Positions 2,652 through 63,797 of a stretch of DNA of 64,000 nucleotides are shown one piece after another. The notes under the pieces are model-generated. The model saw only the letters and a list, made by a program, of their open reading frames with translations, searched no databases and had not been told where the DNA came from. Both the position numbers and the translations under genes were made by a program. Every line of letters starts with the position of its first letter. Position 1 is the stretch's first letter. This DNA comes from Romanomermis culicivorax (lineage: Eukaryota; Nematoda; Enoplea; Mermithida; Mermithidae): positions 62,001 through 126,000 of the forward strand of contig CAWUHX010000102.1 in NCBI GenBank assembly GCA_963922205.1. Direction: 5' to 3'.

Positions 2652-6068
<3,417 letters not shown>

Positions 6069-7063
6069 ATTTTGATTGACAAACGGCTGATAAAAGCTGC
6101 TTTTGCATACAAAAATGATGCAAAAATGATAAGTCTGAAGAAACGAGAAAAATCGATAGTGTCGCCATGGAGAGTAGATCTTGCTTTCTGTGAGTTGATA
6201 AAAAAATCAACTAATGTAAAAATGGCTAAGAATTACTGAGGCATTAACAATGTAACACCGCCAATAAGTTTTGCTTGATAAAAATGCGACCCAAAAATTA
6301 TAGAAGTCATTTTTATTTACTTCTAAACACATATCGATTATTCCTTTATGATATGCTGGGTTTGTTTACCAAGAAACGCGACTTGAACTCCTAGAAATAT
6401 CGACATCAGCTGGACTGCAAGAGTACATGGATAATCCAAAAACTGACTGCCTAAAATTCCACCATAACTGTATCAGGATAAAACCGGGTTTCAGTTTTCG
6501 ATTTTGATAGAAAAATTGCAGTCCATTCACATGTTGAATAGACTTCGGCGATATAAAATAAACGGAAATGAGGAATAAATGAGAGAAGAAAAACAGTACA
6601 TGCAGTACAAAATGGCATTTTTCGTAGATCGTTACATGTCAACTTGGAAAGTATGCAGATTTACAAATGCACATGTTCTTCTGGGGTTTGAGGGATATTA
6701 CCAAGTAGACTAATTGTTGACCACCAGTAGATTCCACGTTCATATAGTCTGTTTTTCTTGAAATGCTTGTGAATATTATGAGTCAAAAGCAAATACAATT
6801 TCATATTATAGCCAATTTCAAATAAGGCTGAGATTTTGTGAGCCAACTCAAATAACCATTATTATCTTTGAGTAAACAATCCTACAGTAAAAGTTTCGTG
6901 TAAGCGGCTTTGAGGGTGTTACCTACCTTTGTCACTTTTTCCATTTAAAAGCATTTACAGAAAGCAAACAATAGACTTATTGAGTTCATCAGACCTTAGA
7001 AACCTTCAATTTTCACATGTGGAATTTTCACGTATTGATAAAAAATCTATTGACTATAATCAT
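6069..7063. other. Upstream flank of the forkhead gene
   Basis: Presumed 5' region of the minus-strand forkhead gene. I see no clear TATA or CpG-type promoter that I would defend. A fragment near 6870-6930 (CTACAGTAAAAGTTTCG, AAGCGGCTTTGAGG) recurs near 52710-52750, so part of this is repeat. Confidence 0.4.
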
Positions 7064-14000: not shown

Positions 14001-17000
14001 TCATTTCAAAAAGAATGCAGTACACTGACACTTTGCTGGATACGTTCTTTTCATTTTTTGTCATTGATATTTTTTCATCAGACAAACATGAGGGATGTAT
14101 TCGGCTCAATTCTGATCTAAAATTTACAGCAATATGAACTGTAGGAGACCATTTCTCAACTTCATCGTCTTTCAATTGATTGTTAGCAGCACATTGGCAT
14201 CAAACGAATATATAGGGGGTGCCATCATTTAAGCAAAATTGATAATGATCCTACAATAAACTGCACTGTATTAAAGATGTAGGGTACCCTGAAACAAGCA
14301 ATACAAGTATAGAAATCTGAGCCTTAGAGTCAACAGAGTTTCTGCAAATTTGAAAAAACATCTAAAAATAGACAGTGACATCCCCCTGAATCTTGAGGAC
14401 TGTTGAGCTTAAAATCTAGATATTTTGTAAGTGTGCATGGGGCCGAGCTTCATCAGTAAACTTTCAGTGATACCCTTGCCCTAGGATTTTGAAAACCAAG
14501 CTATTGCCACTCGATCGGCATCAAAAGGAGAATATACACCATTTCACTGATATAATGTTGATGTTATTGTAAAATTTTGACAACGTTGGGTTATTAGTTG
14601 CACAAAAAATGGTTCGGATAACTTGAATAAGGACTCGAGTGGTAGAGAAAATTTTGTCTGTTTGAAGGTGCTGTGCTTCTGGTTCGTGGATTCTGCAACA
14701 TCTTTTCAGCGCATGGGTAGCACTCATAGTCAACAATATTTTGTATACTTCATTTTTAAATTAGGCCAATTACCAGTTTGGGTTACTATCATCCCATGCA
14801 GAGTAACCTGTTCAAAATTTCCTTATAAATTTACTGATGAAACTCGGCCCCAATCACGCTTACAAAATATCTAGATTTTGGACCCAACAGTTTGAGATTC
14901 TAGGAGGGTTTTTGCCTATTTTTGCATGTTTTTTCGAATTCGCAGAGACCATGTTGATTTTGAGGCTGGGGTTCCTATACTTATGTTGCTCCTTTTAGGG
15001 TATGCTACATCTTTGGTGCAGTGCACATTGCTGTAAGATTAAAAGACAATTTCCTTATATGATGGCTGTACATTTATGGTAGGCGCAAGTGTTTTTATCA
15101 TTTCACTCTAATAGGTTTAGATCATCAGACACAGACACAAAATGAATTCTGCTTAATTCTGATCTGAAGTTTACTGCAACAATTCACACATCAAGCATTA
15201 TGATTAATCTTTTTCAGGAGAATGACATAGACCTTGTGAGGTATGATTAGGCAGGAGGTTGTATCATCCTTTTAGATCAGTTACTCAAAGGAATTGAGCA
15301 AAATTTATCAACTAGATGACAATGCAGTTAAAATCATAAATCACTGTTTTTCTACAACATATCTGAAAGTTGTGGCCTTTTTAATGTATTTTCTCCTTCC
15401 AGTATTGAAATAATGATTCAAATCAATGAAAACACAAAAATGCCAAAAACAATTTATTGATTTTTGAACAATTTTCAGGATTTTGCTTTCTTTGGATTTA
15501 TGTAGCTCCTCAACGGGTATTCGAATCGCGACGCTGCTTTAACATCTACTGTAGGAATGTGTGAACAAAACAATAAAAAGATGGAATTCTGCAGCATGGT
15601 AGGTGAAAGTGCTCGAAGTGTCTCTGAGCAGGTTTTTTCTTAATTTTTGCTTCTTATTTTTAACTGTTCAAACTTTCTTGCAGAGTGTAAAATGTTTGCT
15701 TGCAAAACAATTAATACATGAAACTATAGTCTGTTGGTTATTTGATAATTCTACAGTATAGGTAATAAATATATCACAAGGGGTAGACAGGGGCCACCTG
15801 GCAAATACAATGATTTCTATGAAATTTTCATGAGTATGCCTTCTTCAGAACTGTGCAGCTCCCAGAACGGTACAAAAATTTTGGTGAAAATTTAGCCAAA
15901 GCAGTAAATATGCATGAGCTGCAATATAAGAAAATAAAATTCTGCGGCTTCTGATGGGAAGGTGCTCGGGAGTGCCCATAAACAAAATTTTTTCAATTTT
16001 GACGGCTCGTTCTTGACACTTTAAACCCTATTAAAAAGTGTAATATGCAATTATTTACTGTAAATGTTACATACGAAGAGAGCTTATTCTCTCCTTTATA
16101 AAATAAATATTTATTCATCAAATAAGATCAATCCGATCTTGAAATATCGCATGGCTAGCAAGACCACTGAAAAATGCAAAAAAATCAACAATTTTCAAAC
16201 TTTGGCATACTGTAGCGGCGCGAATTTTCGTTTATAAGCAAAACCAATGGTACCATGGAACTCAGCGCACGAAACTACCCAAAATATCTGATTTTGAGGT
16301 ATGATTAATTTTCAACTTATCATAGAGAAAGTAGAACTTCTCAGAAATCGTGTCTTCTGCGAGTTCAGATTTTGATCATCTTTCAGAATGATTTTAAGAA
16401 ATTACGCATCTCATATAATTTCTAATTTTGTGATTACTTTGGTCCGCTTTTGATAACATACTTCTGGATTAAAAAATTGTACAAATTGATGCTGTCGTCG
16501 AAATCGTTCACACAAAGCTCTTATTGTAGAATTTTTTAATCAAAAAAATAATTGAAAGCTAATCACGTGTGTTCACAAAATTTTCAACCCTACAAGTGAT
16601 ATATGGTTCAGCAGGAAACGCTAAAATATGTTTTCCAATTTACTTTTTTTAAAGCGTTCCAAGATTCCAAGACAAGCAGGCTATGGTCTCGGCTTCAATT
16701 CTGAAAGAAGAACTTCTGGTCGGATTAAGGTGTTCCAGAATGTCCTTCTTCCAAGTTATTCTAAATTCTCCTTCTATGCAATGAGTGTAACTCCGAATAT
16801 GGTTATATAACGTTATCTTCGAAACGACTCAAAAAAACAACAACATTAAAAAAAGTTCCATAATTTGTCTCTAAGAAATGTTTGAAAACTAGAATGACAG
16901 AAATAAGCACTGTCGTTTAGTTCATTTAAACAAATTCTTGATTGTATGCCTTTTTCCCGACCATCCCTTTTCCCCGAATAATGTTATAAATAAATTAAGA

Positions 17001-20000: not shown

Positions 20001-23000
20001 CCAACGTTTAGACGTCTGAACTTTTAGAAAGGTTTTCTGTCATTAGAAAGGTTTCGCTTGCACCAAAATCCCAAAGTTCAAAAGTCTTTTAACATGTATG
20101 TTTCCAGTGGTCGAAAAACACTCTCGATAGATGATCCGTTCCTCTATTTTCACTCCGAAAATGACGGCTTTATTTTCTACATTGGAGTGATGGACAGAAA
20201 TAGTGGTCGGCGTAAAAGTACTAGTGACTTTTGGCCCGAAGGACTTTGTTCTGTCCACTTACGAATTAAAGACACATTACTCGATTTATATGGGGACTTG
20301 TGAACTTCTGAACTACTGATAGAAAGTCGACTCGTTTGAAAATCGTTGATGTATGGCGCATTTCTAAACTTCTGAAAGGACGAAGAGTCGTTAGTGCAAG
20401 CAACTACTTCTGAACTTTTGAAAAGCACTACTGAACATCTGAACTTTTGAACTACTAGATTGGTACAAGCAGGCATTACTGTACTATTATTAGGTACATT
20501 TATGCGAATTTGAGTCTCAAATGAACGATTCCCAAGTGAGCGATTCCCATGTAAGCGATTCCCATGTAAGCGATTCTCACGTGAGCGATTTCCAATCGAG
20601 TGATTCTCAAGTGAGCGATTCAAGTGTGCGATTCCCAACCAAGTGATTCTCAACCGAGTGATTCCCATGTGAGCGATTCCCAAGAGTGGGCGATTCTCAA
20701 GTGATCGTATTCTTATTTGTCCTATATTTTTCTTTGTATGTGTTTCTTTTTCTTTGTTTTATGTGTGCATTGCTTTTGTTTTTATTTTTTGTATGTTTTT
20801 ACGTTTTCATCTTTTGTCTCTGTCTTGTTAAATTTGTTTATTGTCATCAACCAGTTTTTTTTGTAACCATAGTTTCCAGTAATCATTTTTTTATTTTTTT
20901 ATTTTTCTTAGTGTTTTTAGTGATCTTTTTTTTTTATCCCGCATAATTCTTATACAGTTCGGCATGCTCTATTTCTATTTAATTTTTCCCTTTGTTATTT
21001 TTTCTTCATTCTGACTTACTTTTCATCTTGGTTTTTTGATTTTATTCCTTTATCCTTCTCTTTTTCGATTCTGCAGTTCCTTACTTTTTTCGTTCTTTTT
21101 TCGTTCTTGCTGCTTTCTCACGTCACTTTTTCTTCCTTGTCACTTTTCTTCATGTTTGCTTTCTTTTTCTAATGCTTTCTATCTATTTTCACTTATTCTT
21201 GAATCCTTCATTTTTGATGACGTTTCCTTTCTATTGATCTCTTGTTTCTTTTAGCATTCCCTTGTTTTTCATAGAGATTTTCACACCTACAACGATGAAA
21301 TACTTGAGCATACCGAATTGTATGAGAATTACAAGAGGGCCAACACTTTTCAAAATGACCATTTGTAATGTATTGTTTGATGAGCAAAAAAGAAAAAAAG
21401 TAAATTAAAGAAAACGGACATAAAAGATGGAAACGTTGTTATCACATTCTCGATTGCTCATCCGAGAATCGGCCAATGGAGAATTTGCTCATTTGGGAAT
21501 TGCCCGCATGGAAATTGCTCAATTGGGAAGTCGCTCACTTGAGAATCACTCACTTGATAATAAAATTTAGGCCCACTAGGAAGAGCGGCTACGCCGATTA
21601 GCTTCTGGATCCAATTTTTGAATTCGGTTTTCGATTTTATTGAAAAATTTTGATCCGGGGACTGTGTAGGTCAATCTGGTTCCGAATTCTACCCCTCAGA
21701 TCTGATGTTTTGGGTCCGGAACCGTTTTTCACCCATTTTTCCAGTGTGGATTTTCACCTGAAACCGAGTTAGAGTATCGTCAGGATTATTTCCTGATGAT
21801 ACCTCTATCTAATGACGCAACTGACTGTATAAGAGAATAATCTTCGCAAAAGTTTTACAAAAGAACTTACCAAGCCCAAGATTCCATTCTCGCTCTGAAT
21901 TTGAAACTGAACATTTTCGGGAATGAATCGGAGGCAAAGGCTTGGTATTCCAACGCCAAGATTCACTGTACAAAAGAAGAAGAACAATGATCACGAAGGA
22001 AATTAAGTTTATCCTTTTCCTTACCGTAAATTCCATCCTTGAACTCCTGGGCTGCCCTTTTAGCGATTCTAAGTCTATTTTCGGTTTCTTTGATAGCGCC
22101 ATTATTTGAGCTATGTTTAGTAACAAGTTTGGCCACTCGTTTTTCATACTTGTGACCTTTCACTATACGGTCCACAAAAATTCCGGGAACGTGTACGTTG
22201 TCCGGGTCCAATTGACCGGCTGGAACCACGTCTTCGACTTCGGCGACAGAAATTTTCGCTGCTTTGCACATCAACGGATTGAAATTTCGAGCAGTTTTCC
22301 TAGAAAAACTTGTCCGGACGTCAGCAAGAGAAACATTAAAGTTTAGCACGTAATTTGTTGTAACCTGAAAATCAAATTTCCGGCTGTGTCGGCTTTCCAA
22401 GCTTTGATTAGAGCGAAATCAGCCTGCAAGGCTCTTTCCATAATATAATCTTCGCCGCCGAAATTCCTCATTTCTTTAGGTTCGGTAAAAAGCTCGATTT
22501 TACCATTTTGACCATATTTCAGGGGCAAGCCTCCATGCTGTATCAGAGTTCCGACCCCCGTGCGGGTGTAAAAGGCCGAAATACCAGCTCCAGCGGCCCT
22601 GAGTCTTTCGGCTATTGTTCCCTATGAAAAAATGGAAACTAATGACAACTGTTTCAGTTTTCTAGAAATAGTTGCCAACCTACAAACTGAACTTGATTAG
22701 TCAAGTTAAACCGAGTGACTAAATTACAGTACATAATACTGAATTCACACATGTAGAACCAGAAGTATGATTTTTCAGAAATATCGTTAAATTTTCTCAA
22801 TATCACGTCACACAGAAAATATGATTACGCTGATTACGAAAATGACTGGTGAAAATTGCAGTGAAAACAGTCATTTCCAAAGTTTTCACAAAATACGTAC
22901 ATACCTGGGGTGTTATCTCAACTTCTAATTGTCCGGATAAATATTGTTCTTCCACTTCTCTATTGTCGCCTATATAAGCTGCGATAAGTCTTTTAATCTG

Positions 23001-31400: not shown

Positions 31401-34400
31401 TATACACATGAGCAGAAAATAACGAGGAAAACACACACACAAATGAGTGTGAAAGGTAAAAATGTGGAACAAAATTTAAAAAACTAACGCATTTATCAAA
31501 AATATCCGTTAACGGAGGCAAACATGTTGGGGTTACTGTGGGTGCATGTGTTCAGCTTCTGGCATCGGCGCGCAGATGGTGGACGTGGCGAAAAGTGGCG
31601 AGAAAAGAAGACAAATTTGCACGGATTGGTAGTGTCACTGTTTTGTGTGTTTTTGGCATATTATTCATTCTGTTTATTTTTGGATGAAAATGTTAGCTTC
31701 ACCGCCCATTGTCTTTGTTTTATATATTTTCTAATATTTGCATTGACAGCATCATCTCGTTTTCCCAATACAACACTTATTGGTAAATTTGTATTGTTTT
31801 GTGAGCATAGTGGAAGGTTCTTTAAGTTTAGGAGTGGAGACTTGGGTAGAAGCTCCTGAGGTACGTGCCAAGGTGTTCTGCCTGAGGTTTGGTGAAGTAC
31901 TGGAGTGTATCTGGTGAACCATGTGAGAGAGTTTTGGTTTATTGTATTTTGTTAGCCTGTGGTCAGAACTGTTGCAGCTTCGTTTGTATAAACCCAAAGG
32001 TCAGTTACATCATCTAAACCCACAGCAGCCTAACAAGTGGTGGACTCTTAATGCCTCTCATGATGGATAACCAGAGAACCACCAGGAAAACAACTAAATC
32101 ATCAGGGTTTTATAAGCAGCTGCACATGGGTAAGATAGGAAAAATGAGTGTCCCTTTAGATAAAACTTTGAGAACATCTCCTAGGTCACATGAGCCTAGT
32201 GTTTCCAAATTCCACTCTGCTGAAGAACACCCAGCCATAGGACAAATTCAAGCACAGGTGCCTGAGACCGAACTGAGGCAGAAAAGTAAAACTGCCCAAG
32301 TGTCAAGATTGGAAGAGGAGTTAATGAGGGTTAGCTTCGAGATGGCTAAGCAAGCCGAAGGTGAAGCTACTGTAGCCAGAAATGTCAAAGGTCATCAGAC
32401 CTTGGAAAGACAAAGACTGACGATGCCTCTGTTCATCTGATGACAGGAACACTGGATGAGATTAGAGGGAAATTGAAACCAGTGCGGAAGTCGAATTTGG
32501 TCGATATGAATTTGGACGATTATTATGAGGACCCGCCTGCTGAATTATATGACGATCAATATTTGAGGCAATATGAAGCGGAAATGGCAAATTGAATATG
32601 CTGGGAAGATCAAAAGGAATGAATTGACCCGAAAGATCAACAAATTAATGCCTTGGAAAAGAAGGTCGATTTATTAACAAAAATATTGGAAAGCACACAG
32701 GATCGCAAAAAAGAAAATGAGAAGAAGCGGCAAAAGAAGATAAGTGAGTCTTCTTATGCAGAGAGTAGAGTAGAAAGGGTTAGTGAACCTAAAAGAGAGG
32801 TTCAATCAGAAATTTATGTTAGATGTCAAGAGAATACAGATAGATATTCTACTAGGGATAAAGTATGGAACCCGGAACCAGAGATTTCAAGAAATGCTGA
32901 ACAAGCACAATCAAATGATTATGCTTATTCAGTAAATAGGAAATCTAGGGAAAGGAAGGTGACTTTCTGTGATGAATCCTCCCAGGGAGAGGATAGGTTT
33001 TCTCATCCTACTCCATAGAGAGATACCACAAATAGAGCCAAGTCTAGCCCTGAGAGAAGGAGAAGGAGAAAATCAAAAAGTAGAAGGAGATCTCATAGAT
33101 CTAGAGCTAGGAGCAGACATTATTCAGATAGTGATAATAGCAGTTCGTCTACGTCAAACTCTAGCTCAAGTGTGGAAGTAGATGTTAGAGATGTGGTAAA
33201 GGCCTTGAAACATAAACCTTTACATGATAGTATAAAGCAGACAGAAGCACTCAAATTCTTTACTGATCTTGGAAGTGACTTTTTGGAGAATACTACTGAT
33301 AAGATCAAGAAAGAATGTTTGAGAAGATTGTCTCAGAATATGGCTGGGAGGATAGCAAGAATGTCCTCAAGTTATACAGAAGCACAGAGTAATATCTTAA
33401 AATATCTAGCGCCAACTTATGAATTGAGGATGCTCATGAGAGAGCTATTCAACATAAGCAAGAAGAAGGTGAGATTTTAAAGAGTTTTTACAAATATATG
33501 TCCCATTTATCTTTAGAGTTTTTAAAGAGATTGAGTAATCATGTGGATCTGGTCTATGCAGATCAGACAGATCAAGTAAGGCAGGAAAATATTATTAATG
33601 CCTTCCTTTACAAAATTAGTTCATTGTACCAGACAGAGTTGCAGGATGTATTGCCATCAATGAAAACATGGCAAGACCTTGCATACACCGTAACACAAAT
33701 TGATAAAAAGTATAAAAATGTTTTTACTACTTTTGGAGCTAAAGATAAACCTATTGTGGTAAACCAAGTGGTAGCTATGGAGGAGAAATGCCCAGAAATT
33801 GCTTTTGTAGGGAATGCTCAGTATGGAAGTACTAAAAGGTATAACCAAACAAAAGCAAGACCACAAAATCAGTTGCAAAAGGCAGTTGAGGATCAGAGGA
33901 GTGACGAAAATGGCGAAGAGATGCAACCTGGTCCATCAACTCGTGACTTCAAGCAGACTAACATGGAGCAGGCCAAGGAATCATTTTTAGCTATTCTCTC
34001 AAAGGAGTGACTACAGTTGGTGCAAAAAGTGGATAAATTGCAGGTCACACAAAATGAAGCTTTGAAAGATTTGACTACTGTGAAGCAGTCTGCGTCTGCT
34101 GAAAAGAAAAAGCTAGCTAAGCAGCAGAGACCCTATTGTATTTATAAAAGAATAATACTCATGCTACGGACAATTGTAAAACTTTAGCTTATGGTCATCA
34201 GCAACAGCAACGCTGTGGATTTAACCATAGCATCCCAAATCAGTATTATGGAGGAGATAGAGGTTCTTCATTTAGAGGACAATTTAGTGGTAGAGGTGGA
34301 CTGCAATTTGGATTTAGAGGAAGAGGTAGAGGTGCCTACTATGTGGGATTTCTGGAAGAAGATCAAACCTATGGGTATGACCCAGAGTTTGAGAGATATA

Positions 34401-37400
34401 GGGAATGCTGCAGATTGAGAGAGCAAGGTATTCAATTGCAGAGGCAGCCTCAGTTGATGCTACCTGCATCAACTAGTCAACCAGTGATTCGGGCTCGTAC
34501 CATCCAGGACCAGACTGAATCATTTGTTCCGAGCCAGTCACAATCTACTTCACATAATGTTATGGTCACAAGCTGTGCAGATGTGAACAATGAAAGTGAT
34601 CTGAGTAGGGACAAATCTTGAAATCTGATTCTAGGAAGTATTATTCACCTGGATAAAGTGACCCCTCAGGAAAGAGTGAGGAGTGAAGATTCAGCTCATG
34701 TAAAGTATGAAAGGCAAGTGACAGATAAGGAAAAGAAATTGTTGGAAAATTATTTAAAGATGGTTCCATTCTACATCAATGTAGAATGGAGAAACAGCTA
34801 CATCAATGTAGAATTGGAGAAATGGCTACAAGAGCCTAATTGATACAAGAGCGCAGTGTACAGTCATGTCTTCTAAACTTTTGAAAAAGGCATTAGACAT
34901 TGACTATACAGTGTACCCCCAGATCCTTAAGGTGACTGTTGCTGATGGAAAAATTGTACATGCCTTTGCATATGTACCATTTTGTATGAGAACTGAATTT
35001 AGGCATTTTCTAGTGAATGCTATAGTGTTGCCAGATGTGGGTGAAGACCTGATCTTGGGCACAGATTTTTTGGCACACCCAGATCTAGGTGTGATAATTG
35101 ATTTCAGAAGGAATGCCATGACTATACAGGGCATTGAAAAGACGATTGATGTAATTCAAGTCCCTTCTGTAACTACTGTGCAAATGGTAGTGGAAGAAGT
35201 GCCTAAAGTTAGGGAAGCATCCATTGATTGTCAAAATCAAAATGTTTATCCGAAGGTCTGTCTTCTAAAGACAACTGTTTCAATTGTCACATGTGGGAAA
35301 ACCTACATTCCATATGGAACAGATGTTTTAATAAAGGCAAAACTTTGGGATCAACACCAAGATACTACATTGAAGAGAAAGCAGTTGTAGACAAATCACA
35401 GGAATCATTTGTAGTACTAATCTCAAATAACACGGGTTCTGGTTGTGGATTTGTTAGAGATATCAAATCATTGGCTATACGGAATCAATGTTAGTTGAAG
35501 ATGATGATACGTACAAGAAGTTGAAGAGAATGGAAAAAATAAAGGAGGAGAAGGAATATCAGACATGTATGGTGAAGGAAGAAATGCCTAGAGAATCAAA
35601 ATCAGATTCTGTAGAATTTTATAATTCACTATGCAGGATGATATCAAAAGCAAAGATTTCGGAGGAACAGAAATCAAAAGCTATAGAATCTCTGTTGCAG
35701 TATAGAGATGTCTTTAGCTTGCCTGGTGATCTGGCAACTACAACTCCAGCTCTTACTTGCATGATAGATACAGGAAATGCAAGACCTGTAGCGAAAAGGT
35801 ATTATAGAGCTGCTATTAATAGTGGTCCTGGAGTGAGGCGACATATTAAAGAGATGGTAGATCAAGGAGTGATAGAGCCCTCGAAATCACGGTGGGCTGC
35901 ACCTTTGTTCCTGGTGGGGAAAAAGGATGGAACTACGAGACCCCTAGTTGATTTTAGAGGTATAAATGAGGTGACCAAGGATGATAAATATCTGATTCAT
36001 AGAATGGATGACTATTTAGATTGCCTTGGAAAAGCCAAATTTTATACAACTTTGGATTTGAAATTGGGATATTGGCAGGTCCTGATGAAGGAGGAGAGCA
36101 AGGAGAAAATGGCTTTTATATTTCAGGAAGGCCTGTTTCAATTTAAAGTGATGCCATTTGGTTTGAAGAATGCACCTGCTGAATTTCAAAGGATGATGGA
36201 GAGAATCCTTGGAGATTTGGTATGGAAAATTTGCCTAGTGTATATAGATGATATAATCATCTTCTCCAATATGTTCGAGGAACACTTAGAGAATTTGACA
36301 TTGGTGCTACAAGCTTTGAGAAAAGGAAAATTGACCCTTATGCCAGAGAAATGTGAATTTCTTCCTGAGAAAGTCCATTTTTTAGGAGACATCTTGAACG
36401 GGAATGGAATTTCTCTGGATCCTAAGAAGGTCAAGGCCATAATGGGGTTTCCATTCCCTGATTCTGTTAAGAAAATGCAGAGATTCCTAGGTATGCTACA
36501 ATGGTGTAAGAAATTTATACCGGGCCTAGCGGCACTAGCTGAACCTTTGTACAAATTGACAGGAAAGAAGGGAATGTGGAATGTGATGGAGCAGCATTGC
36601 GAAACATTTGAGAAGCTCAAAATAACATTGACCTCAGTTCCTTCCCTACCACATCCAATTTTAGATGGATCTGCCAGATTCATTCTTCAAACAGATGCTA
36701 GTGGAATTGCATTGGGAGCAGTATTATGCAAAGAGAATGACTCAGAACGTTGGGTAATGGCCTACAATAGTCTGATATTGCAGGCAGAAGAATGAAAATG
36801 GTGTGCCACTGAAAGAGAATGCTTAGCTGTGGTCTACGGCCTTGAAATTTATAAACATTATGTTTTGGGTCAAAAGGTCATGATTCAAACTGACCATAAA
36901 CCATTATTGTCAATGAGGGTCAACACACAGACTAATGAAAAACTCAAAAGGTGGTACGCATTCATTTGTCAGTTCAACCACAAATTGGAGTATGTGCCTG
37001 GCAGGTAAAATGCCATGGCAGATTTTCTTTCGAGGAAAGAAGAGCCAGACGAGCAAAAGGAAAAGTTGCCACCAAAGTGGGAACTTATTTTTCAAAAGGA
37101 AGAATTGAAATCTCCAACTGAAGACGAAATTATTAACCAAACCACAAAGTTTTGGTGAATCAACTTTGGAAGCTCAGAGGAGATGAAGTGGATGGGGCTG
37201 TAGGAGTCTTCACTTTTGTGGAGATGGCCACAGCTTCAGAGACTTCAACATATTGTACAGGTGATGAATCTTGACTTAATCTTTCTCCAGAATTTGATAA
37301 CTATCAAGGCCCTGAGAAATATGAAATTTTGCACTAGTCACAAGACAGATGGCAAAAAACTTGCAGCAGGAAGGAAAAGAACACCCTCCTGGGCAAGAAA

Positions 37401-38818
37401 AGCCAGTGGAGGAAGTCAAACGTATTTTTGAACCAAAAGAGATAGAGTTTGAGGAAGCCCCTTAAGTTGAGGACTATAGACCAAAAAGGCTTGTCCCAAA
37501 TGCTTTAATGGCTCAATTGCAAGCCAAAAATCAAGATTTAAGAGTAATCTTCAAGAAATTAGGTGTTAACAGCAACACCATGTCTCAAAGTAACTTATAT
37601 ATCAAAGAAGGGATACTATATAGAGAGACTTTTGGCAAGGCAGAGGAGGAAGTTGTTGTGCCCTCTGTTCTCAAAAAAGTTGTCCTACATCAGTATCACT
37701 ATGCGGTCATAATGACGCAATAAGGGTTCAAGAGAACCCTTGCTATTGTTAAAAAGCAATTCTGGTGGCCAAGCATCGAAAAGGATGTTCCGAGCTGGAT
37801 CATTTTTTGTCCAGTATGTCAAATCGGGACTCCAGGAAAAGCTACGATACCACCATTAAATCCAATTACTCCTAGAGGACTGTTTGACATAGTTTCTGTT
37901 GATATCATGGGAATCTCTCCCATGAGTGAGAAGAGACCATATGTGATAGTGTTTCAAGATTATTTTACCAAATGGGTGGAAGCAGAGATGATCCAAGATC
38001 AATCTGCTGTAACCATTGTGGACAGTTTTTTGAGATACATTGTGTTCAGGCATGGAACCCCACTCAAGTTGTTGAGTGATAATGGTTCATGCTTTACAGC
38101 TGATTTGATGATGTCAGTCTGTAAATTGTTGGAATGTCAGAAAATTTTCACAACTGCCTACCATCCACAAGGAAATGGAATGTTTGAAAGGTTTACCAAA
38201 CCTTGATCAAGCAGTTGCCAAAAGTTGCTATTGAAGATTTTGATAAATGGGACATATATTTGCAATCTGTCATTTTTGCATATAATGCCACACCTCACAC
38301 CTCAACAAAGTGTTCACCATTTGCCTTGTTGAGAGGGCATGAGGCTAATTTCGGCATAAGCATTGGTGTTGCAAGAAACATAGTTCTGCCCATGAACTAT
38401 GAGGCTTATAAGCATGTGCTAACCAAAAGTTTAGTAAAAACTTATGAGACTATTTCTGAAAACATCAGAAAGGCTGTGGAGAGCAGTAAAAAGTTTTTTG
38501 ATCGTAAAGCAAAGGCATATGATTATTCCGTCAATGATTGGGTTTTGCTGAAAGTTGGTAAACAGAAAAAACTGGGTCTTGTGTGGCAAGGACTGTATAT
38601 AGTTACTGATAATAGCAGATTATCAGATAATGTGCTTACAATCGCATACTGGAGAGAGCCATTAAAAATGCAGGTTGGGTCCATGAGCAGGTTGAAGCAC
38701 TTTCGCTATGAGACGGGCAGACAGCTGCAGTCTAACGACATGTCATCAATTGAGGCACAGTTTACTGTAGCTTCGAAAATTCATAATTATAAACTGCCGT
38801 AGAGCGTAGCGCTGTATG

Positions 38819-38852
<34 letters not shown>

Positions 38853-41800
38853 AATTACCCCCCCCCCCTATTTTTCGTCCCAAATTTTGTGATTAGGTAC
38901 AAATTGTAATTATTTGTGTTTATTTCATGTATTTATCACAACTTTGTAAATTCATTTCGCGTAATACTTAAATTTTCCAAAATTTTTGGTAAAAAACCAC
39001 TTTTGGCATAAATCCAAAAACCTTAAAATTTTTTTGCGCCCCTAACTTTTCAAATTTTCCTGATTCTGAGTAATTTTTTCGGAGGAATCAGCTAATCATT
39101 GCCCCCAATTCTGTGAATATTTGGAAGAATTGGAAAACTGCAGGGTTTTGGAGTGAAAAGAGACAAAAAGTAGCGAAAGCAGAAACTGTTGATTTTTCAG
39201 CTCTCAAAAAATTTATTATAAATTCAAAAATCGATAGCGCAGATTCAAAAGAGTTTCAAAGTGAAGATCAAGAAATGTCATGACCCCCCAATGGTCATTG
39301 AATGAAGCAGTATCTAGTCACTGACCCCCAGGTGGCCTATGGACAGCGGCAACTGCGGCAAGATAATTGGTATTTTCTCATCGATGGTAAGTGACTGAAT
39401 TTATTTAACTTATTTAACCAAAACTGGGCAAAGCAGAAAGTTATAGCCCATGGGTGTCTAGATGAAGGCCTAGACAATTTCCAAAAATTGAGTGGGTTCA
39501 AAATTTTTCTGTCAAACTTGAAAAGAGTTGTGGCAAAGCTGCCCTTAGGGCGGAGTTTGTACTTTTTGCAAAACTTCGTCATTTTCCTACACACTTAGTG
39601 AATTGAATAAACTGGTCTAAGTGATGGAGAAGAAGTGGAGTGTAGCAAGTAGTTGACTATGGGTATATAATTTGAAAATTGGTCAAAATAGTCAAATTTA
39701 ATTTTTCTCTCAAAAATCTTTTAAGAATTTTTTCAAATTGTGTAAGGGGGTAAGTTTTTTCTCAAATTTTTCTTGGAAATTCTCGACTCATCGATTGGAT
39801 AGGCCGTGTTGGGCATTGGATTGAACCAGCTAGCAGTCGAGTGATGGAGGACGCAGGTGGTCTGTGCATGTACTTCCTAGTAAGGTAGAAGTCAGGGCGG
39901 CACTTGTGTTCAACTATCTGCCAACACTAACCCAATATATATTTGGCACCTTCAAATTGTCCTTTGCTTGCTATTTTCCTATTTGTCCATACTGTTTGTG
40001 GTGAAGGTGAAAATTTAACTGATGTCTGTCCGGTCAAAATCAATATTTTCATAAAAAGTTAGTAAATATTTTTTCCGAATTTCTAGACTACAACCTTAAA
40101 CGCGTTGTTAGAGTCAGCGAGTTAGAACAATGGTTTGCAACGAATTTGGGCCCATACCCATGCAAGTTAACAGAGCCGAAAATGATCGAAATTGGTAAGG
40201 TGGCTGAAATGATTGAAACGCTGAAGGATAGCAGGTTTCGGGGTCAGCCAATCATTGGTTTTGATACGGAGAAGGTAACACAGGAATATGTAAGTAAGGT
40301 CTATGCAACTTCTGGGGTTGATAACCCATTAGGGAAGGAGTTCACAAGGGTCATTAGCTTTTCAACGGTGACAGGAGACACCTTCATTATGGATACTACA
40401 GTAGTCATGCCGAAGGAATGGATGCTCATTCATGAGCTCCTAGATTCGAACATGCTTATCATTGGATACAACTTGGTTACAGATCTAGTAGCTATTCAGA
40501 ACATTAATGGTGGTGGTAGAAAGAACCAAAGTATTAATTTAATGAAGGAGATTAAACATAGAGGTCTTTGTATGGCCATTATTACGATGTAGCCAAGGTA
40601 GGAGACCTATTAAATGGAAGGTTTTTGGCATTGTCCAGGAAATTGGGACTTTGCCCCGAAACTTTTAAGCTGAAGGGGTTGTTTAGAGAGTTATATCTGA
40701 CGGATATAGATTATTTTCAAATCGATTTCCGTCAGAGAATGCAAAATGAACAATTCTGTAGGTAGAATTTAATGCAGTTTGAAATCAGATAGTCAGCACT
40801 TGACGCCTACTACTCATTAATGGTTTTCTTAGCCTTTTTCCATTATGAGTTAGCCATGGAAGTTGAGGTCCGATTCCAAAACTTTTCTCATGATTTGATG
40901 AAAGCGGATCAAATCCAGTTGATGGCTTTTAGATTCTACAAGTTTTTCAAATGATTCATGGTGAAAACTTCCCACAAATCTTTTGTGGAAGCCTGGAAGT
41001 GGAAGAGCCACAATCATTGTGGGTTTATCATGTAATGAGGCAGGAGATGTATGCCCCTATAGCTGCCCAGTTGGACACCTCATTTGGAGGCAGACCCGAA
41101 TAGAGGGAGAGATGTGAGTACCCCCAAGGGGATTCACCCTGATTATACCCTCAAGGAGAAATGTAAGAATGTTAACATGTATGATACGTTGAGTGAGGAT
41201 GAAGAGTTTGAAGGAGCTTTGTTGAAAAAAAAGATTAGAGCTCGGATTACGAAGAAAGTGGTGGATATGGTAAATCTAGGAAAAGGGTTTATTAAACTTG
41301 ATGAACCAGTATCCATGGTGTTGTATGAGAACTTTCTGAGGTACAGGAAAGAGACAGCAGTTGTTAGAAATTACATCTCTGGAAGTTGATTACCTTGAGT
41401 ATGAACAAGTCAATATACTGAATGGTAAAGACTCATACATAAGACTACACTGGAGGATGGACATAGGCCCATATTCTGAAATATTGGTACAACACATTTT
41501 TAAGAATCTGGAGGCAGCATGTAACAAGTTTCCCCTTACATTTAATTTATTTTGGCCACATAGTAGAGAAGAGTCAGAGGAGTATCTGACCTCTCTCCTT
41601 GACCACAACTATTTGAAGTCTTTTAGCCTAGAAGGGAGTTACTTTTGAAATTGTTGTGGAGAGGAGAATGGTATGGTCAGTATTTAGCTTTTAATAGTAG
41701 TTTCCCAGTGATAGAAGTGCATACACCAACTAAGGGCAATGCAATTACTTGCTGGGGAAATTGCTTCAGGTTCATACCAATTCGACTTTGGCTCAAAACC

Positions 41801-44800
41801 AAATCCTGGGAGTCCAAGCTGGCAGAGAAAAGGAACCATTTGGCGGAGTGTCCATAGTACAAAGGCAACCAGTATTGTTACCAATGATTTTACTTTCGCT
41901 AAATAGTGGTCCGACTGCTAGGACTACGATTTCCCATAGATTTGAGCGAAGATATGGTGAAAGAGAATCAGAGAAAAAGTGTGGTGGCGTATCAACCTGA
42001 GTACATACCAGGTTAGGAGCCGCCATTTTTCCAAAATATTTTGCCATTGGATCAGCCAGGGATCCAGATTACACACATTCGCAACAAGGTTATGATAACG
42101 CCGATAGGTAAGCAGCCATCAGCGCCAGTTACAGGCGCTAAGGTAAGCACAATGGCAGATCAGCAATCTGAACAGCCTAAGGTAGATAGTGGTAAGGTAG
42201 AGCAGGTGGTTGGGATGCAGGTTGAGCCTATTGCAGCACAAGCACAGCAACAAGCGATACCTGCAGACCTGAACACGTCAATAGATTTGAATCAGGAAGG
42301 AGATGATTTAGAAGTGGACAAGGAGGTCACTGTTGAATCCTCTATGCAACCTGATGAGGAGACACAGGTTATGTCTTTGGTAGACCAGACCGAAAGTTTA
42401 CTTTTTGGAATGGATGTAAGAGCGGGACAGATGATGGATGAAAGCAATTTGATCACAATTGCTGGAGGTCCAACAATGGCACAAATTGAAGCAAGGCTGC
42501 GGGAGCAAGCTGAGAAAGAAATTGGAAGACAGAAAGAAATCTTTGTTAAAAAGCTTGTGGAGCAGAAAGGGAGATTGGATGAGCAGCAGAAGCAGCTGGA
42601 GCAGGTTCTCGCTGGTTTTACGGTGCAGCCGATGCTTCTGGCAGTGCCCACATCCATTCAAGCTTCAGTTAAGCTGCCTACTGCTCATCACATACCAAAG
42701 TTAGCAGCACCGCCAGCTAGTACGCAGGTTATAAAGCCTGCAGTCAGCAAGAGAGTGCTGATAGTACAGGGACCCCAAAGGGATCCTTTAATAGATGGCG
42801 GTATACCCGATATTCATACCACTGAAGAAGTGAAGAGGTTTAGAGATAGTGGTCATACAGACGATCAAATTAAGAGGTTAGGGAGACAGAAAATCGCCTG
42901 AAAGGCCAATAGGGTGAAAAAGAGAGAAGGTGAGGATGTTATAGAGATCAGTGATAACGAAGGCAAACAAACGGAAAGTACAACATCTACGGACTCCAAA
43001 TTTGTTGGATTGACGACTTTATTGACTGATTCAACAAAGTTCAAGAAGAAAACAATGTGGATGAGCCAGATGCCTGGAACTTCAAGTTCTACGAGTCAAG
43101 CACAGTCGATGGCAGTTATGGCATAAGTACCTAGTAAATCAACTACGTGGCAGGCAAGTGCTGTGACTAAGGGTACTTGGGCAAAGCCTACATCTAAGGT
43201 AGACCAGACATCTCAGCAGACCCAGAGCAGTTCCTCGGGGAAAAAAGTTATTTCCAAAACCTCTACGTCGGAGTCGACTAAGCCGGCCAAGAGAAGTAGA
43301 GATAAAGAAGTAACTTTGGAGTACTTGAGCTCTGTTTTGAGAGACTACTGGGACGTCCATAAGAGATTTCCGGTTGTGAAAGGAAAGATAGATTTTTCGA
43401 CACCGGAGGTGATTGAATTTTTTGCACTGGATATGCTGGATTATGAAAGGAATCAAATCATCTGGGCACTAGTCAATAATGGAGTAGAAGAACTTTATGA
43501 GAACTAGGGGGATTACTTTGAAGTCCAAGGTGGTTTCCTGTATGATCACATAAATGTTCCCGAACCCATTTGGGAATACATCTGGATCAAGATGATGCCC
43601 ATCTGGTTTCACAATTTTGATGCAGAAATTGTTATGGCTGCCATGAGATACTTATGTAACATGGTTTTGCTAAAGTTAGAGCAGCAGCAGTTGGGCCGGA
43701 TACACATTGGTGCAGTTGATGCACGGGTCAAATCATTTGTTACGGAAAAGTACTACACAATCTACTTGTGGGGAGAGGGTAGAACTGCATTCAGGGAAGC
43801 TTATGCCAACCTAATGCAGGAACACCAGCAAATTGCAATGGATATGGCAACTAAGAGGAGGTTGCCAGAAGTTGTCCAGAGGTTTTCTGGAAAGTTTGAG
43901 AAAGCCGAAGATGATGAAGGTCAACCGTTTAAGATTCGGATTTTGAAAAAACGTCAGCCTAGGGATATATCCAGGAGTAGGAGCCAGCACTTGTGACATT
44001 TTATCACATTCACAGGGTAGGCAACAGCCAGGAGTATTCAAGTTACCTTATGCAAACCAACAGAGTCAAGGTAGGTCCAGTGCCTCCGCCTCTGGAGTAT
44101 CTTCCATAAGTTCCACTCAGGGCCAGCACCAGAGAGGAACTGGAGGGGGATATGGCCACGGCTGGGGTCAGGGACAGGTTCAAGGCTATGCCTTGAAGAA
44201 GGTGAATCCACAGCTGTTTAGAGGTCAGGCGACGGCTGGGGTCCTCGTGGGACAGCATCTCGAGGAGTTTTTGGGGGATTCCTCAGGGGTCACTGAACTG
44301 GGGGCAGTCCCTATCCTCGCTGTAGCAGATTTCAGTATGGCGGTTATGGAGGCGGTGGGCAACGATGATTCATTATAGCCACATAATTTTTGGACCAAAA
44401 ATCGTTATTTGGTATAAATTTTATTTCAAAAATACAAAAGACAACAACACAAATAAAACACAGAATACAAGAAAAAATTATTATCTCATCACACTATTGC
44501 TTTGAAATTTTAAAATTTTTACACATTTCCGGTGCTCAAAACTTGCCCAGCAAAATTCGTTCTTTCCGTCCATCTTCTTTCGGGGGTATATATAGCCCTT
44601 GTAATTTTGCATCATATTTCTTTTTGATTTAAGGGCCTGAAAAAGATCAAGACATGAAATATTTTACATATTATTGTAAAATTATTTCGTAATCAGGTAA
44701 ATTAGTGTAAATAGACAAAAAACTTTTTTTGTCGTTTAGGCTAGTATTGGATGTGGCAATTCGATGAACCGCTGACCATAGAAGAAGCGCATCTATGGTA

Positions 44801-47800
44801 ACCCTACGCCAGAGAAACCAGTACATGGGAGAAGAGGAATGGCGGTGCCCCGGATCTAGGCACAGATTGCTTTGCAAAGTCCAGGCCAAATGACATTCGA
44901 GATTATCCAATGTAGCCTGAAAATGAGTGCCCTGCTGAATGGAGTGGTCAAAGTTGCCGTCACCTAAAGGACCTGGTAGGGGCTGGATTGCAATTTGGAG
45001 TGGTAACCCCAAGGAGTTGTTTTTCGAGGGAGAACTATTATGCAGTCCTGGGACTCAGTATGGGACTCAGGCTGCAGAAAGGATTTCACCTCCTGTCAGT
45101 TGGTTTTGAGGGCTGAGGGATGTAGGGGTTACTGTGGGTGCACGTGTTCAGCTTCCAGCATCCGCGTGCAGGCGTTGGAAGGGGCGAAAAGTGGTGAGAA
45201 AATAAGACAAATTTGCATGGATTGGTAGTACCACTGTTTCGTGTGTTTTTGGCATATTATTCATTCTGTTTATTTTTGGATGAAAATGTTAGCGTCACTG
45301 CCTATCATCTTTGTTTTATATATTTTTTAATATTTGCATTGACGGGATCATCTCGTTGTCCCAATACAATGCTTAAAAGTAAATTTGTATTGTTTTGTGA
45401 GCATAGTGGAAGGTTCTTTAAGTTTAGGAGTGGAGACTTGGGTATGAGCTCCTGAGGTACGTGCCAAGGTGTTCTGCCTGAGGTTTGGTGAAGTACTGGA
45501 GTATCTGGTGAACCGTGTGAGAGAGTTTTGGTTTATTGTATTTTGTTAGCCAGTGATCAGAACTGTTGCAGCTTCCTTTGTATAAACCCAAAAGTCAGTT
45601 ACATCATCTAAACCCACAGGAGCCTAACAAACAAAAATCAGTGGCAACTAAAACAAAAGAAAAACAACCAAGCAAATGAAAAATTCCCGAACAAAATGGG
45701 GGAAGTCATTAGGTGAAATTAAGGAAAACAAAATATGAAGAAAGAACAAATACTAAATACTCGGACAAATAGCCGGACAGACAAAGACAAAACGTTTCGA
45801 AGAAGAATGTAGGAAGCAAAATGAAGAAAATGCAGAATAAAGCATAAATAACAAGAATAAAGCAAGGTTCTGTTGAAGCAACTCAATTCGAAAATTGAGT
45901 ACAACGAGTCATAAATGGTGCACTTACTTTGTCTCTAGGTGGCGTTGAGTCCATATCAACCCATGGTAATTTGCCTGTCGTATATTCAATAAGACAAAAT
46001 AGCCTGTAACAAAAAGAAACTGTTACTAAAATACGACAGAAATCATTACTTTATCGACAACCAAGCCCATATATCGTCACATCGACCTTGATCTTTTTCC
46101 ATTAGGGCGGAAACGGAGGCATACCTAAAAATGCTTTGGGATGCCATAACAGGGTCAAATACTGTATGCCGGCCCGTGCTCGGACGTGTAATGTCTTACC
46201 ACGGCGTGCCTCTGAATGCTACTTTTATACGAGGTCTATGAATTATTCTCTTTTCATTCAGATATAGTCTGCAAAAATGCAGAAAATTAAACAAAGAGAC
46301 AAGATACGACAAGAAAATTTAGAAACCTGCATAATCCCCAATCTAAAATATAGACTGACTTCGTATCATGGGGTTCTCTGCCGATGCACATATTAGCTGG
46401 TTTTATATCTCGATGAAGATACCTGGGTAAAAGATACATATGAATTTTCTGACAGCAGACCGATTCCAATCGAACACTTTGCATCAATATACCAGCAGTA
46501 TCGCTGCGGACCGAAGTTATCAGGCGTTGGCATCTCGTGGCAGTGAGTGAGACATTTTGCAAATTTCCAAAAATCGGTAGTGCAATGTATCAAACGCCTT
46601 ACCCTGCTCTATGGATCTCTTCCAAACTCAGCAAACTGGTTGAACCGATATGCAGACAACTGTACAAGGTGAATCGCCGAAAAGGCATGGTTTTTCGTAG
46701 CTCGTTCAAATTTTTACCCACCAAACCCATGACCACGTAGTTGAATAGCTCGGTCTTGCCGCAGCACACATAGCCTGGGTAATGTGTGGCCTTGGCGTCT
46801 CGCAAAGCCCTGAGCACGGTCACTTCCAATGGTAACATTTTGGGTGGGCCGCCTTTTTGTTCGGCGTTAGTTTCAATCTGGAGAAAAATGAACATCAAAA
46901 AACAAAAATGTTCAGCAAGGTCGGAAAAGAAATCGATGATTAGACGCATGGGGTCGAAGACTGAAGGAAAACCGAACATTTGATGTATATTCTCCATCGT
47001 CAGATATCAGACAAAATATGGAGGATGGGGGAGTATGGAGTTATCGGACGGGGGTCAATGGCGCATTCGCATTTTATAGACTGATGATAAAAAATACCAC
47101 TTTTCTCATAGTTGGCAATGACATTGCAGTAGATTTGAAGGTGAAAGAGCAAGGTGAAATTAACACGAGGTGATTTGAGAGTAACCTATAGTCGGTTTTT
47201 TTTTTAAATGCTTGTAACGCAAAAATGTTGAAAGTAAGTACGCATGCAGAATTTCGTGCCGAGATAATATCGTTGTTGACTGTATGTTGGGAATCGATTA
47301 ACCAGCAACGGTAAACTGACTAAACTTTTAATTAAACTCGATAACTCTTTCAACAATAATTTCCGTCCGATGCGAGATCCGGAAAAATTTTCGCACGGCT
47401 AAAAAATATTCGCTCTGCCCAGAAAAAGCTAAGCAAGTGACCAGCGATACGATTTGCGCTCGATTTTGAGATTTCAACTTCCCAGATCACATCAATTGTA
47501 TCACAATCTTGACTCATAAATTTTTTTCACTAAACAAAAACCACGTTCAAAAATTTTTTTTTCGTTTCCAACTTTTTTTCTCAAATCAAATAGCCTACAA
47601 TTACGGAATGCGACAAGGGCCATTTGATCTTCCAGAAAAAATTTTTTGAAGAAACCAATATGACGGCAAACATTTGATTTTCAAGTAAATTTTTTTGAAA
47701 AACCCGATACAGTTTTCCGTAAATCATCTAATTTTTCAAAATTTTATCGAGTTTTTCAAAAATTTATCAAGTTTTTTAAAAAATTTATCGGGTTTTTCAA

Positions 47801-62950: not shown

Positions 62951-63797
62951 GTCATGTCAGTAGAACGATTGTTGCAGCGATCAACAAGAATCACTTTGGT
63001 CAATAAAAATCCGGAGTCGCTTGATGTTCTGTGTGAAATTGATACTGACGTCAGGAAGCTAAATATTCTCAACTTTTTATTGGAACTTATTCCACTTTCA
63101 TACTCTGTACTAGTCGTCAACCCATTCAACTTTTATTCTTTAGTCTACACGACTCGGGTTGTTAATCAACGATATACGTAAAAAGTATCAGCAGATCAGT
63201 CCTGATCTATCAAAAAAATGTCGCAATATAATCAAACTGTGGCAAAAATTATTATTAGCCGGCGGAAACGTTTCGGGGTTAGGCGTCGACGGCGGCAGTG
63301 CGACAAGCAGCCCGGCTTCGGTGATCGGTGGCGCCAGTTGCGGTCAATCCGTTACACCAAAAACTCTGTTTTCCAAATTATCGTCGGCGACGGCGACCAC
63401 CGAACGCGTAGCCAGTAGCCCCGGTTTCTTACAATACGATCGAAGTTTGACACCCAAAAATCAATATTCGAAAAATGCTGTGATAATTAACGGTCATCGT
63501 CGTTTAAATAACCTCAGCCCGTCGTTGGCCGCCGACGATTTAAACGTTCCCGGTTTAGTTGCGTGGAAGAAAACGAAAAAAGTAGAAGAAAAATCCGTTC
63601 AATCAACGAAAGCAAACGATTTTTCGGCGACGACGCCGACGCCTGTTTCATTGAAAATACGTATTAAAATGACGGCCGGTGGGCCGTCGGGTACCGAACA
63701 ACAGGTGTCGATTGTTAAATCGGTTTCGGTGCCAAATTTTGGTCCCGAGAGTGAGAACAAAACGACAACAACTTTAAAAAACGGGGTCGCACGATAA
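62951..63797 (+). CDS. Mediator subunit 26-like protein (partial)
   Basis: MED26 links the Mediator complex to TFIID and elongation factors through a TFIIS N-terminal (LW) domain. Two exons are visible. The first, 62951-63106, follows a TTTTACCCAG acceptor and encodes PESLDVLCEIDTDVRKLNIL, aligning with the MED26 'MVAVLEVISSLEKYPIT' helices. A 37 bp intron (63107-63143) precedes exon 63144-63797, which opens STRLGLLINDIRKKY and then NIIKLWQKLL, close to human 'TRLGKLINDVRKK...WQKL'. The rest is Ser/Thr/Ala-rich, with DDLNVPGLVAWKK near codons 125-140. The frame closes at 63797 without the conserved MED26 C-terminal 'WPGVNG...W' region. Further exons probably lie beyond the window, or the stop is real and the protein is short. 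TFIIS or elongin A are alternatives, but MED26 fits best. True start not identified. Confidence 0.68.

What the first reader, a model, noticed from the sequence alone, without database searches (positions are those of the whole stretch)
40086..40954. DEDD 3'-5' exonuclease domain inside an LTR retrotransposon
Four motifs of the RNase D/WRN-type exonuclease fold occur in order between pol and the 3' LTR: FDTE, a beta-hairpin block, YNLVTD, and ALDAYYSL, with normal spacing. Ty3/gypsy elements usually have either env or nothing here. An exonuclease could trim cDNA ends, act on RNA primers or counter host silencing; these roles are inference. The motifs are seen directly, but this copy is broken by a frameshift and two stops.
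Basis: partly seen in the sequence, partly recalled or inferred. Interest (0 to 1): 0.85.

Follow-up and report, generated by a model that had tools for sequence, protein, structure and literature searches.

The report
Exonuclease gene inside a worm retrotransposon
A large retrotransposon of a mosquito-killing roundworm carries an extra gene that begins with a divergent nucleic-acid-trimming enzyme, conserved across many copies; a similar case was already known in rotifers, so it is a striking new variant rather than a wholly new kind.

Summary
Between pol and the 3' LTR of a decayed LTR retrotransposon (LTRs 31525-32035, 45121-45629) lie the catalytic motifs of a DEDDy 3'-5' exonuclease, split by a frameshift and two stops, one at the motif-III tyrosine. 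The broken pieces give no Pfam hit, but copies in the same genome settle it. The assembly's size and contig count match Romanomermis culicivorax. Of 2,766 candidate places 150 were scored and 150 match. PF01612 is the only Pfam family found, in 16 of 17 chosen sequences (best E 1.7e-4, below the curated cut-off). All five catalytic residues survive in 24 of 40 copies. Open copies show purifying selection (dN/dS about 0.13). The exonuclease heads an ORF3 that is open over 1,445 codons in two copies checked, with a coiled-coil-like part, a Gly/Arg-rich tail and no clear membrane segment; window 40.09-44.38 kb is its wreck. DEDDy ORF3s are published for bdelloid rotifer LTR retrotransposons (PMC5408684), so the kind is known; I found no report of it in nematodes. 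Fold, activity and role are unproven.

The parts
31525..32035 (+). 5' LTR (TG...CA)
   Evidence: 92.0% identical to the 3' LTR over 513 aligned bases; ends read
32018..34621 (+). gag-like region, broken into several frames; Arg/Ser- and Gly-rich stretches; label by position only
   Evidence: no gag profile in the three frames scanned (33019-33480, 33423-34010, 34148-34621)
34812..35390 (+). protease
   Evidence: PF13975 E 2.3e-6
35458..36795 (+). reverse transcriptase and start of RNase H
   Evidence: PF00078 E 2.3e-33, PF17919 E 3.4e-10
37724..38802 (+). integrase (zinc finger, core, C-terminal part), two overlapping frames
   Evidence: PF17921 E 1.1e-8, PF00665 E 3.4e-12 for 37724-38206; 38188-38802 has no family above cut-off and is called by continuity in copies
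40070..40086 (+). candidate 3' splice site (pyrimidine-rich run ending TTTCTAG) at the upstream edge of ORF3
   Evidence: YTAG followed by ACTACRAY at this place in 22 of 25 copies looked at, window included; the G of TAG was part of the search pattern; function inferred
40086..40592 (+). exonuclease domain, first frame: motif I FDTE, strands, motif II YNLVTD
40565..40954 (+). exonuclease domain, second frame with two TAG stops: motif III SALDAYYSL
41063..41648 (+). ORF3 middle region (D1, D2), no known family
   Evidence: follows the exonuclease on the same strand, whole or in part, in 8 of 8 fetched copies; no Pfam family at E<=1 in this part of two open copies
42017..42901 (+). ORF3 Gln/Glu-rich, coiled-coil-like region (CC)
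   Evidence: present in 6 of 8 fetched copies; coiled coil judged from composition only
43127..43996 (+). ORF3 conserved C-terminal region (E1, E2)
   Evidence: dN/dS 0.08 between two copies
43947..44378 (+). ORF3 Gly/Arg-rich tail
45121..45629 (+). 3' LTR

Best explanation
The region is the wreck of ORF3 of a multi-copy LTR retrotransposon of Romanomermis culicivorax. ORF3 is a long protein (open over 1,445 codons in two copies checked), probably made from a spliced mRNA (inferred). Its N-terminal domain is a divergent DEDDy-type 3'-5' exonuclease of the RNase D / WRN / MUT-7 / DNA polymerase A kind. Shown: motifs, sub-threshold but exclusive profile match, retention of the catalytic residues, purifying selection, place in the element. 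Inferred: the fold, and that it is an active nuclease. Most likely mechanism (my estimate about 0.4 given that it is a nuclease): the coiled-coil-like part and the Gly/Arg-rich tail hold the protein on the element's own RNA or cDNA in the particle, where the exonuclease trims 3' ends of element RNA, or of cDNA before integration. Counter-silencing is the next choice (about 0.25). The confidence given is for identity and anatomy, not for the role.
For: Profile-profile match of nine open copies to three DEDDy profiles built here: probability 58-69, 0 of 378-379 column shuffles reach it. Catalytic positions in 40 aligned rows: D 36, E 35, D 38, Y 34, D 32; all five in 24. dN/dS 0.13-0.18 in 15 pairs with L170 (dS 0.63-0.87), median 0.13 in 104 other, not independent, pairs. 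Own genome: 40 of 40 scored DNA matches of 369 candidates, 150 of 150 scored protein matches of 2,766 candidates. ORF3 open over 1,445 codons in both copies fetched for this (L239, L240).
Against: All Pfam bit scores shown lie below the gathering cut-off (13.9-20.6 of 23.6). The window pieces hit nothing in Pfam, and window-wide chance tests were not significant, with some shuffle controls as good. NCBIfam gave only a weak exonuclease/polymerase hit for the first piece (E 0.12) and nothing for unbroken L170. Both AlphaFold2 jobs failed (mean pLDDT 37 and 35), so the fold is not shown. phmmer of L170 against solved structures gave no exonuclease. The family profile scored known exonucleases only weakly (EXD2 4.6 bits, a MUT-7 homologue 3.3; 3 of 138 reported forward targets above the best reversed control). 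HHalign printed format warnings; real and shuffled alignments were treated alike. No activity data.
Confidence: 0.85

Rival explanations
1. A pseudo-exonuclease: the fold is kept as an RNA-binding module without catalysis, as reported for Maelstrom and EXD1.
For: Precedent is named in PMC5408684 (passage read). The domain is very divergent.
Against: All five catalytic residues are kept in 24 of 40 rows and each in 32-38 of 40. In the alignment all ten sequences keep FDTE and YNLVTD, and the nine that reach motif III keep YSALDA.
Confidence: 0.1
2. Chance resemblance: a conserved retrotransposon domain of unknown fold that happens to carry DxE, NxxxD and YxxxD.
For: Window-wide motif statistics are weak; scores sit under Pfam's cut-off; no structure model.
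Against: One family out of 24,736 is found and it is the predicted one, in 16 of 17 members; in the open copies it covers profile positions from 29-50 to 165 of 173. Column shuffles never reach the profile-profile score.
Confidence: 0.07
3. ORF3 is an envelope-like gene in the usual position.
For: It lies downstream of pol and may be spliced, as env genes are.
Against: No clear transmembrane segment (highest 19-residue hydropathy window 1.58 and 1.71 in two copies, both at residue 1198); no env family found in two open copies.
Confidence: 0.03
4. A one-off nested insertion or a captured host gene in this copy only.
For: None found.
Against: Same module in 150 of 150 scored matches, next to the same ORF3 parts in 8 of 8 fetched copies; integrase lies upstream in 5 of 8 plus an end fragment in 1, and an LTR in the right orientation downstream in 5 of 8.
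Confidence: 0.01

Closest known systems
DEDDy ORF3 of bdelloid rotifer Juno and Vesta LTR retrotransposons (Rodriguez 2017, PMC5408684)
   Same: LTR retrotransposon; extra ORF downstream of pol; RNase D-like DEDDy exonuclease; no membrane domain reported for that ORF
   Different: Other phylum; bdelloid Juno/Vesta carry a dUTPase between protease and RT, not found in the frames scanned here; the bdelloid motif is reported as DEED, here D-E-D-D with Tyr; the bdelloid ORF is said to lack coiled coils, here a coiled-coil-like part follows and the exonuclease heads a 1,445-codon frame. Direct sequence kinship not tested, as the rotifer proteins were not in hand
Athena / Terminon Penelope-like elements of bdelloids (as described in PMC5408684)
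   Same: DEDDy ORF carried by a retroelement
   Different: Different class of retroelement
Dada DNA transposons with a DEDDy domain (PMC3706591, passages read)
   Same: Mobile element with a DEDDy exonuclease
   Different: DNA transposon; domain lies inside the transposase
Cellular EXD2, MUT-7/Nibbler, WRN, RNase D, DNA polymerase A exonuclease domains
   Same: Motif order and catalytic residues; EXD2 and a MUT-7 homologue scored best against the family profile
   Different: Very low similarity (at most 4.6 bits); origin cannot be placed

Membership tests
DEDDy 3'-5' exonucleases (PF01612) | Motifs DxE, (N)xxxD and YxxxD in order | tested here: met
   Read in the window (Tyr is a stop there) and in copies; all five residues in 24 of 40 rows
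DEDDy 3'-5' exonucleases (PF01612) | Profile match | tested here: inconclusive
   Only family found, in 16 of 17 members, E down to 1.7e-4, but below the gathering score where bits were shown; window pieces none; profile-profile above all column shuffles
DEDDy 3'-5' exonucleases (PF01612) | RNase H-like exonuclease fold | tested here: inconclusive
   AlphaFold2 models of no confidence; no fold search was run on them
DEDDy 3'-5' exonucleases (PF01612) | Metal-dependent 3'-5' activity | not testable with these tools
   Needs a bench assay
LTR retrotransposon, Ty3-type | Paired LTRs and order protease, RT, RNase H, integrase | tested here: met
LTR retrotransposon, Ty3-type | Place in the Ty3/gypsy clade by an RT tree | not tested
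   No reference RT set was in hand
Bdelloid Juno/Vesta elements with DEDDy ORF3 | DEDDy exonuclease ORF downstream of pol | tested here: met
Bdelloid Juno/Vesta elements with DEDDy ORF3 | dUTPase domain between protease and RT | tested here: not met
   Not among Pfam families of frames 34812-35390 and 35458-36795; frame 35228-35494 and other copies were not scanned
Bdelloid Juno/Vesta elements with DEDDy ORF3 | Sequence kinship to the rotifer ORF3s | not tested
   Rotifer sequences not in hand; three protein searches with the broken pieces found one relative, from R. culicivorax
Envelope-bearing retrotransposons | Transmembrane envelope protein in ORF3 | tested here: not met
   No clear membrane segment in two open copies by hydropathy

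The most novel reading that the evidence does not exclude
ORF3 is a retrotransposon-encoded silencing suppressor: its 3'-5' exonuclease erodes host small RNAs. A 2015 survey (PMC4323106, passages read) reports that R. culicivorax lacks PRG-1/Piwi, that piRNAs were not detected outside clade V nematodes, and that HENN-1, which protects piRNA 3' ends by methylation, shares the conservation pattern of PRG-1. Unprotected small RNA ends in this host would suit such a weapon, and its genome is reported as 68.2% repeats (PMC10879605, passage read). Nothing here tests it.
Probability: 0.18. Interest if true: 0.85.

Novelty: new variant of a known kind. Interest (0 to 1): 0.52.

Why it matters
It suggests that carriage of a DEDDy exonuclease by LTR retrotransposons is not confined to rotifers, and it gives a system where the gene is under purifying selection in a multi-copy family, in an animal reported to lack Piwi. 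The rotifer study reports no significant departures from neutrality for its extra ORFs and leaves catalysis undemonstrated (PMC5408684, passages); here dN/dS near 0.13 over the domain says the protein sequence matters to the element, so the role can be tested.

Tried and rejected
Nested insertion in this copy only: rejected. Pfam, NCBIfam and PHROGs on the broken pieces: no exonuclease family in Pfam or PHROGs, one weak NCBIfam exonuclease/polymerase hit, E 0.12. Protein database: first-frame piece found one relative, P0002 of R. culicivorax, which carries the motif-I stretch (66 residues, 76% identical) and, compared by eye, two later stretches of the same ORF3; second-frame piece none; padded first-frame piece none. 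IMG/VR scans for relatives of the piece and of WRN/EXD2: none. AlphaFold2 twice: no usable model, so no fold search. Tree with host EXD/WRN/MUT-7: not done, because the PF01612 search of the own genome did not complete. One search used a wrong query file (P0002 text appended to P0001) for the first piece and was replaced; one search timed out; two searches were script errors, replaced; one search used a wrong offset and was replaced.

Full report
Host and element. The window lies in an assembly of 359,112,060 bases in 595 contigs, which agrees with the R. culicivorax version 2 assembly (359.1 Mb, 595 scaffolds; Table 1 of PMC10879605, passage seen). The only database relative found is also from that species. 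The element has LTRs at 31525-32035 and 45121-45629, 92.0% identical, so it is not a recent insertion. Protease, RT with RNase H, and integrase follow in Ty3 order; the RT clade was not tested.

The observation. The frame breaks between motif II and motif III, and the second of two TAG stops stands at the motif-III tyrosine. From the broken pieces alone the case was moderate. No Pfam hit. HMM shuffles as good as the real first piece: 88 and 8 of 5,000 with two profiles; second piece: 25 and 3,143 of 5,000; the first piece was the best of 250 reported window frames with one profile and fifth of 231 with the other. Profile alignment shuffles: first piece 0 of 331, 1 of 331 and 0 of 330; second piece 118, 0 and 0 of 330. 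Window-wide scans did not single the place out (ranks 35, 29 and a tied 1 of 620; third, within the range of simulations).

Copies decide. The DNA stretch 40086-40592 gave 369 candidates in the own genome; 40 were scored and 40 match at 80-100% identity. The protein search gave 2,766 candidates; 150 were scored and 150 match at 71-100%. In that table I count, by eye, 66 of 150 with an open frame of at least 1,400 codons by the tool's measure; in the two copies fetched for checking, the stop-to-stop frame was 1,445 codons in each, less than the tool's 1,498 and 1,462, which I cannot explain.

Of 40 rows (39 fetched loci and the window), 12 have the domain free of stops and gaps in one frame; catalytic positions are kept as D 36, E 35, D 38, Y 34, D 32 of 40, one row having no letters at the last two; all five in 24 of 40. 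The nine unbroken copies scanned one by one match PF01612 and no other Pfam family, as do the N-terminal pieces of two open ORF3s. Of the 17 members of alignment A4, chosen for open frames apart from the window piece, 16 match PF01612 and nothing else at E<=1; the member that misses must be taken to be P0001, the window piece that ends before motif III, since it found nothing (one search gives only the count). The bit scores shown are below Pfam's own cut-off, so this is a divergent relative. Profile-profile alignment of nine open copies against three DEDDy profiles built here scored 37.5, 37.7 and 36.8, where 379, 378 and 378 column shuffles reached at most 24.0, 26.8 and 23.2; with the third profile the match covers only the motif-III half.

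Selection. Over the exonuclease part, the median dN/dS of 104 pairs of open copies is 0.13, and 15 pairs with the other subfamily (L170) give 0.13-0.18 at dS 0.63-0.87; one pair of 105 was dropped for too small dS. Pairs are not independent. Choosing open copies biases against stops, not much against missense changes. Between L239 and L240 the ORF3 parts give 0.06-0.15, except a linker at 0.31.

Anatomy of ORF3. After the exonuclease come a middle region (D1, D2), a Gln/Glu-rich coiled-coil-like stretch, a conserved C-terminal region and a Gly/Arg-rich tail. Pfam found only insignificant hits there (E 0.2 and above). Among eight further copies of 9.9 kb, D1 and D2 follow the exonuclease, whole or in part, in 8 and the CC part in 6; an LTR in the element's orientation follows in 5, and L171 has instead a mainly inverted LTR piece; integrase lies upstream in 5 and as an end fragment in 1, and in 2 no pol was found in the stretch fetched. 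These copies were chosen because they carry the exonuclease, so they do not say how many elements lack it.

Expression. In L239 and L240 the first methionine is codon 49, yet the first 60 codons show dN 0.037 against dS 0.568. A pyrimidine-rich run ending in YTAG stands just before ACTACRAY in 22 of 25 copies looked at; two more hits (L171, L175) were at wrong places and one copy (L189) had none. This suggests a spliced mRNA; it is an inference. Several copies (for instance L191, L219, L221, L230) have an in-frame ATG just upstream of this place, so an unspliced start is not excluded.

Relation to the known. PMC5408684 describes DEDDy ORF3s in bdelloid LTR retrotransposons and in Athena elements, at least two acquisitions, by Juno and by Vesta, and suggests 3'-end processing of element RNA or a silencing role, undemonstrated. 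PMC6338049 and PMC5718144 repeat the point (passages). In the listings of my searches of the open-access library I saw no report of such a gene in nematode LTR elements or in Romanomermis; one search showed 20 of 22,791 papers, and most subscription papers are not held. Hence: known kind, new variant.

Function. Of the roles, I favour 3'-end trimming of element RNA or cDNA inside the particle, from the company the domain keeps (coiled-coil-like part, Gly/Arg-rich tail, no clear membrane segment). Counter-silencing is the bolder reading and has circumstantial support from the host's reported lack of Piwi and the conservation pattern of HENN-1 (PMC4323106, passages). Neither is tested.

Noticed in passing
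40070-40094 and the same place in copies: Conserved pyrimidine-rich run ending YTAG at the upstream edge of ORF3, with the first in-frame methionine only at codon 49 in L239 and L240: a candidate splice acceptor.
   Followed up: partly
L239:117-4451, L240:116-4450: ORF3 of 1,445 codons with further conserved regions of no known family beyond the exonuclease.
   Followed up: partly
38803-40085: About 1.3 kb without a frame of 80 codons on the + strand wholly inside it, between integrase and ORF3; about 1.0-1.3 kb also separates the two in the five copies with both.
   Followed up: no
12069-13246 and 15182-16356: Inverted repeat pair, 92% identical over 1.2 kb, outside this element; perhaps another mobile element.
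   Followed up: no
3656-6206 (-), 21963-22418 (-), 63144-63797 (+): Frames that look like host genes: forkhead-like, succinyl-CoA transferase-like and Mediator-26-like; recognised from recall, no search run.
   Followed up: no
P0002 (A0A915JIQ3): A UniRef protein of R. culicivorax looks like a gene model stitched from three stretches of this ORF3, one tested, two compared by eye, so annotation may take retrotransposon pieces for a host gene.
   Followed up: partly
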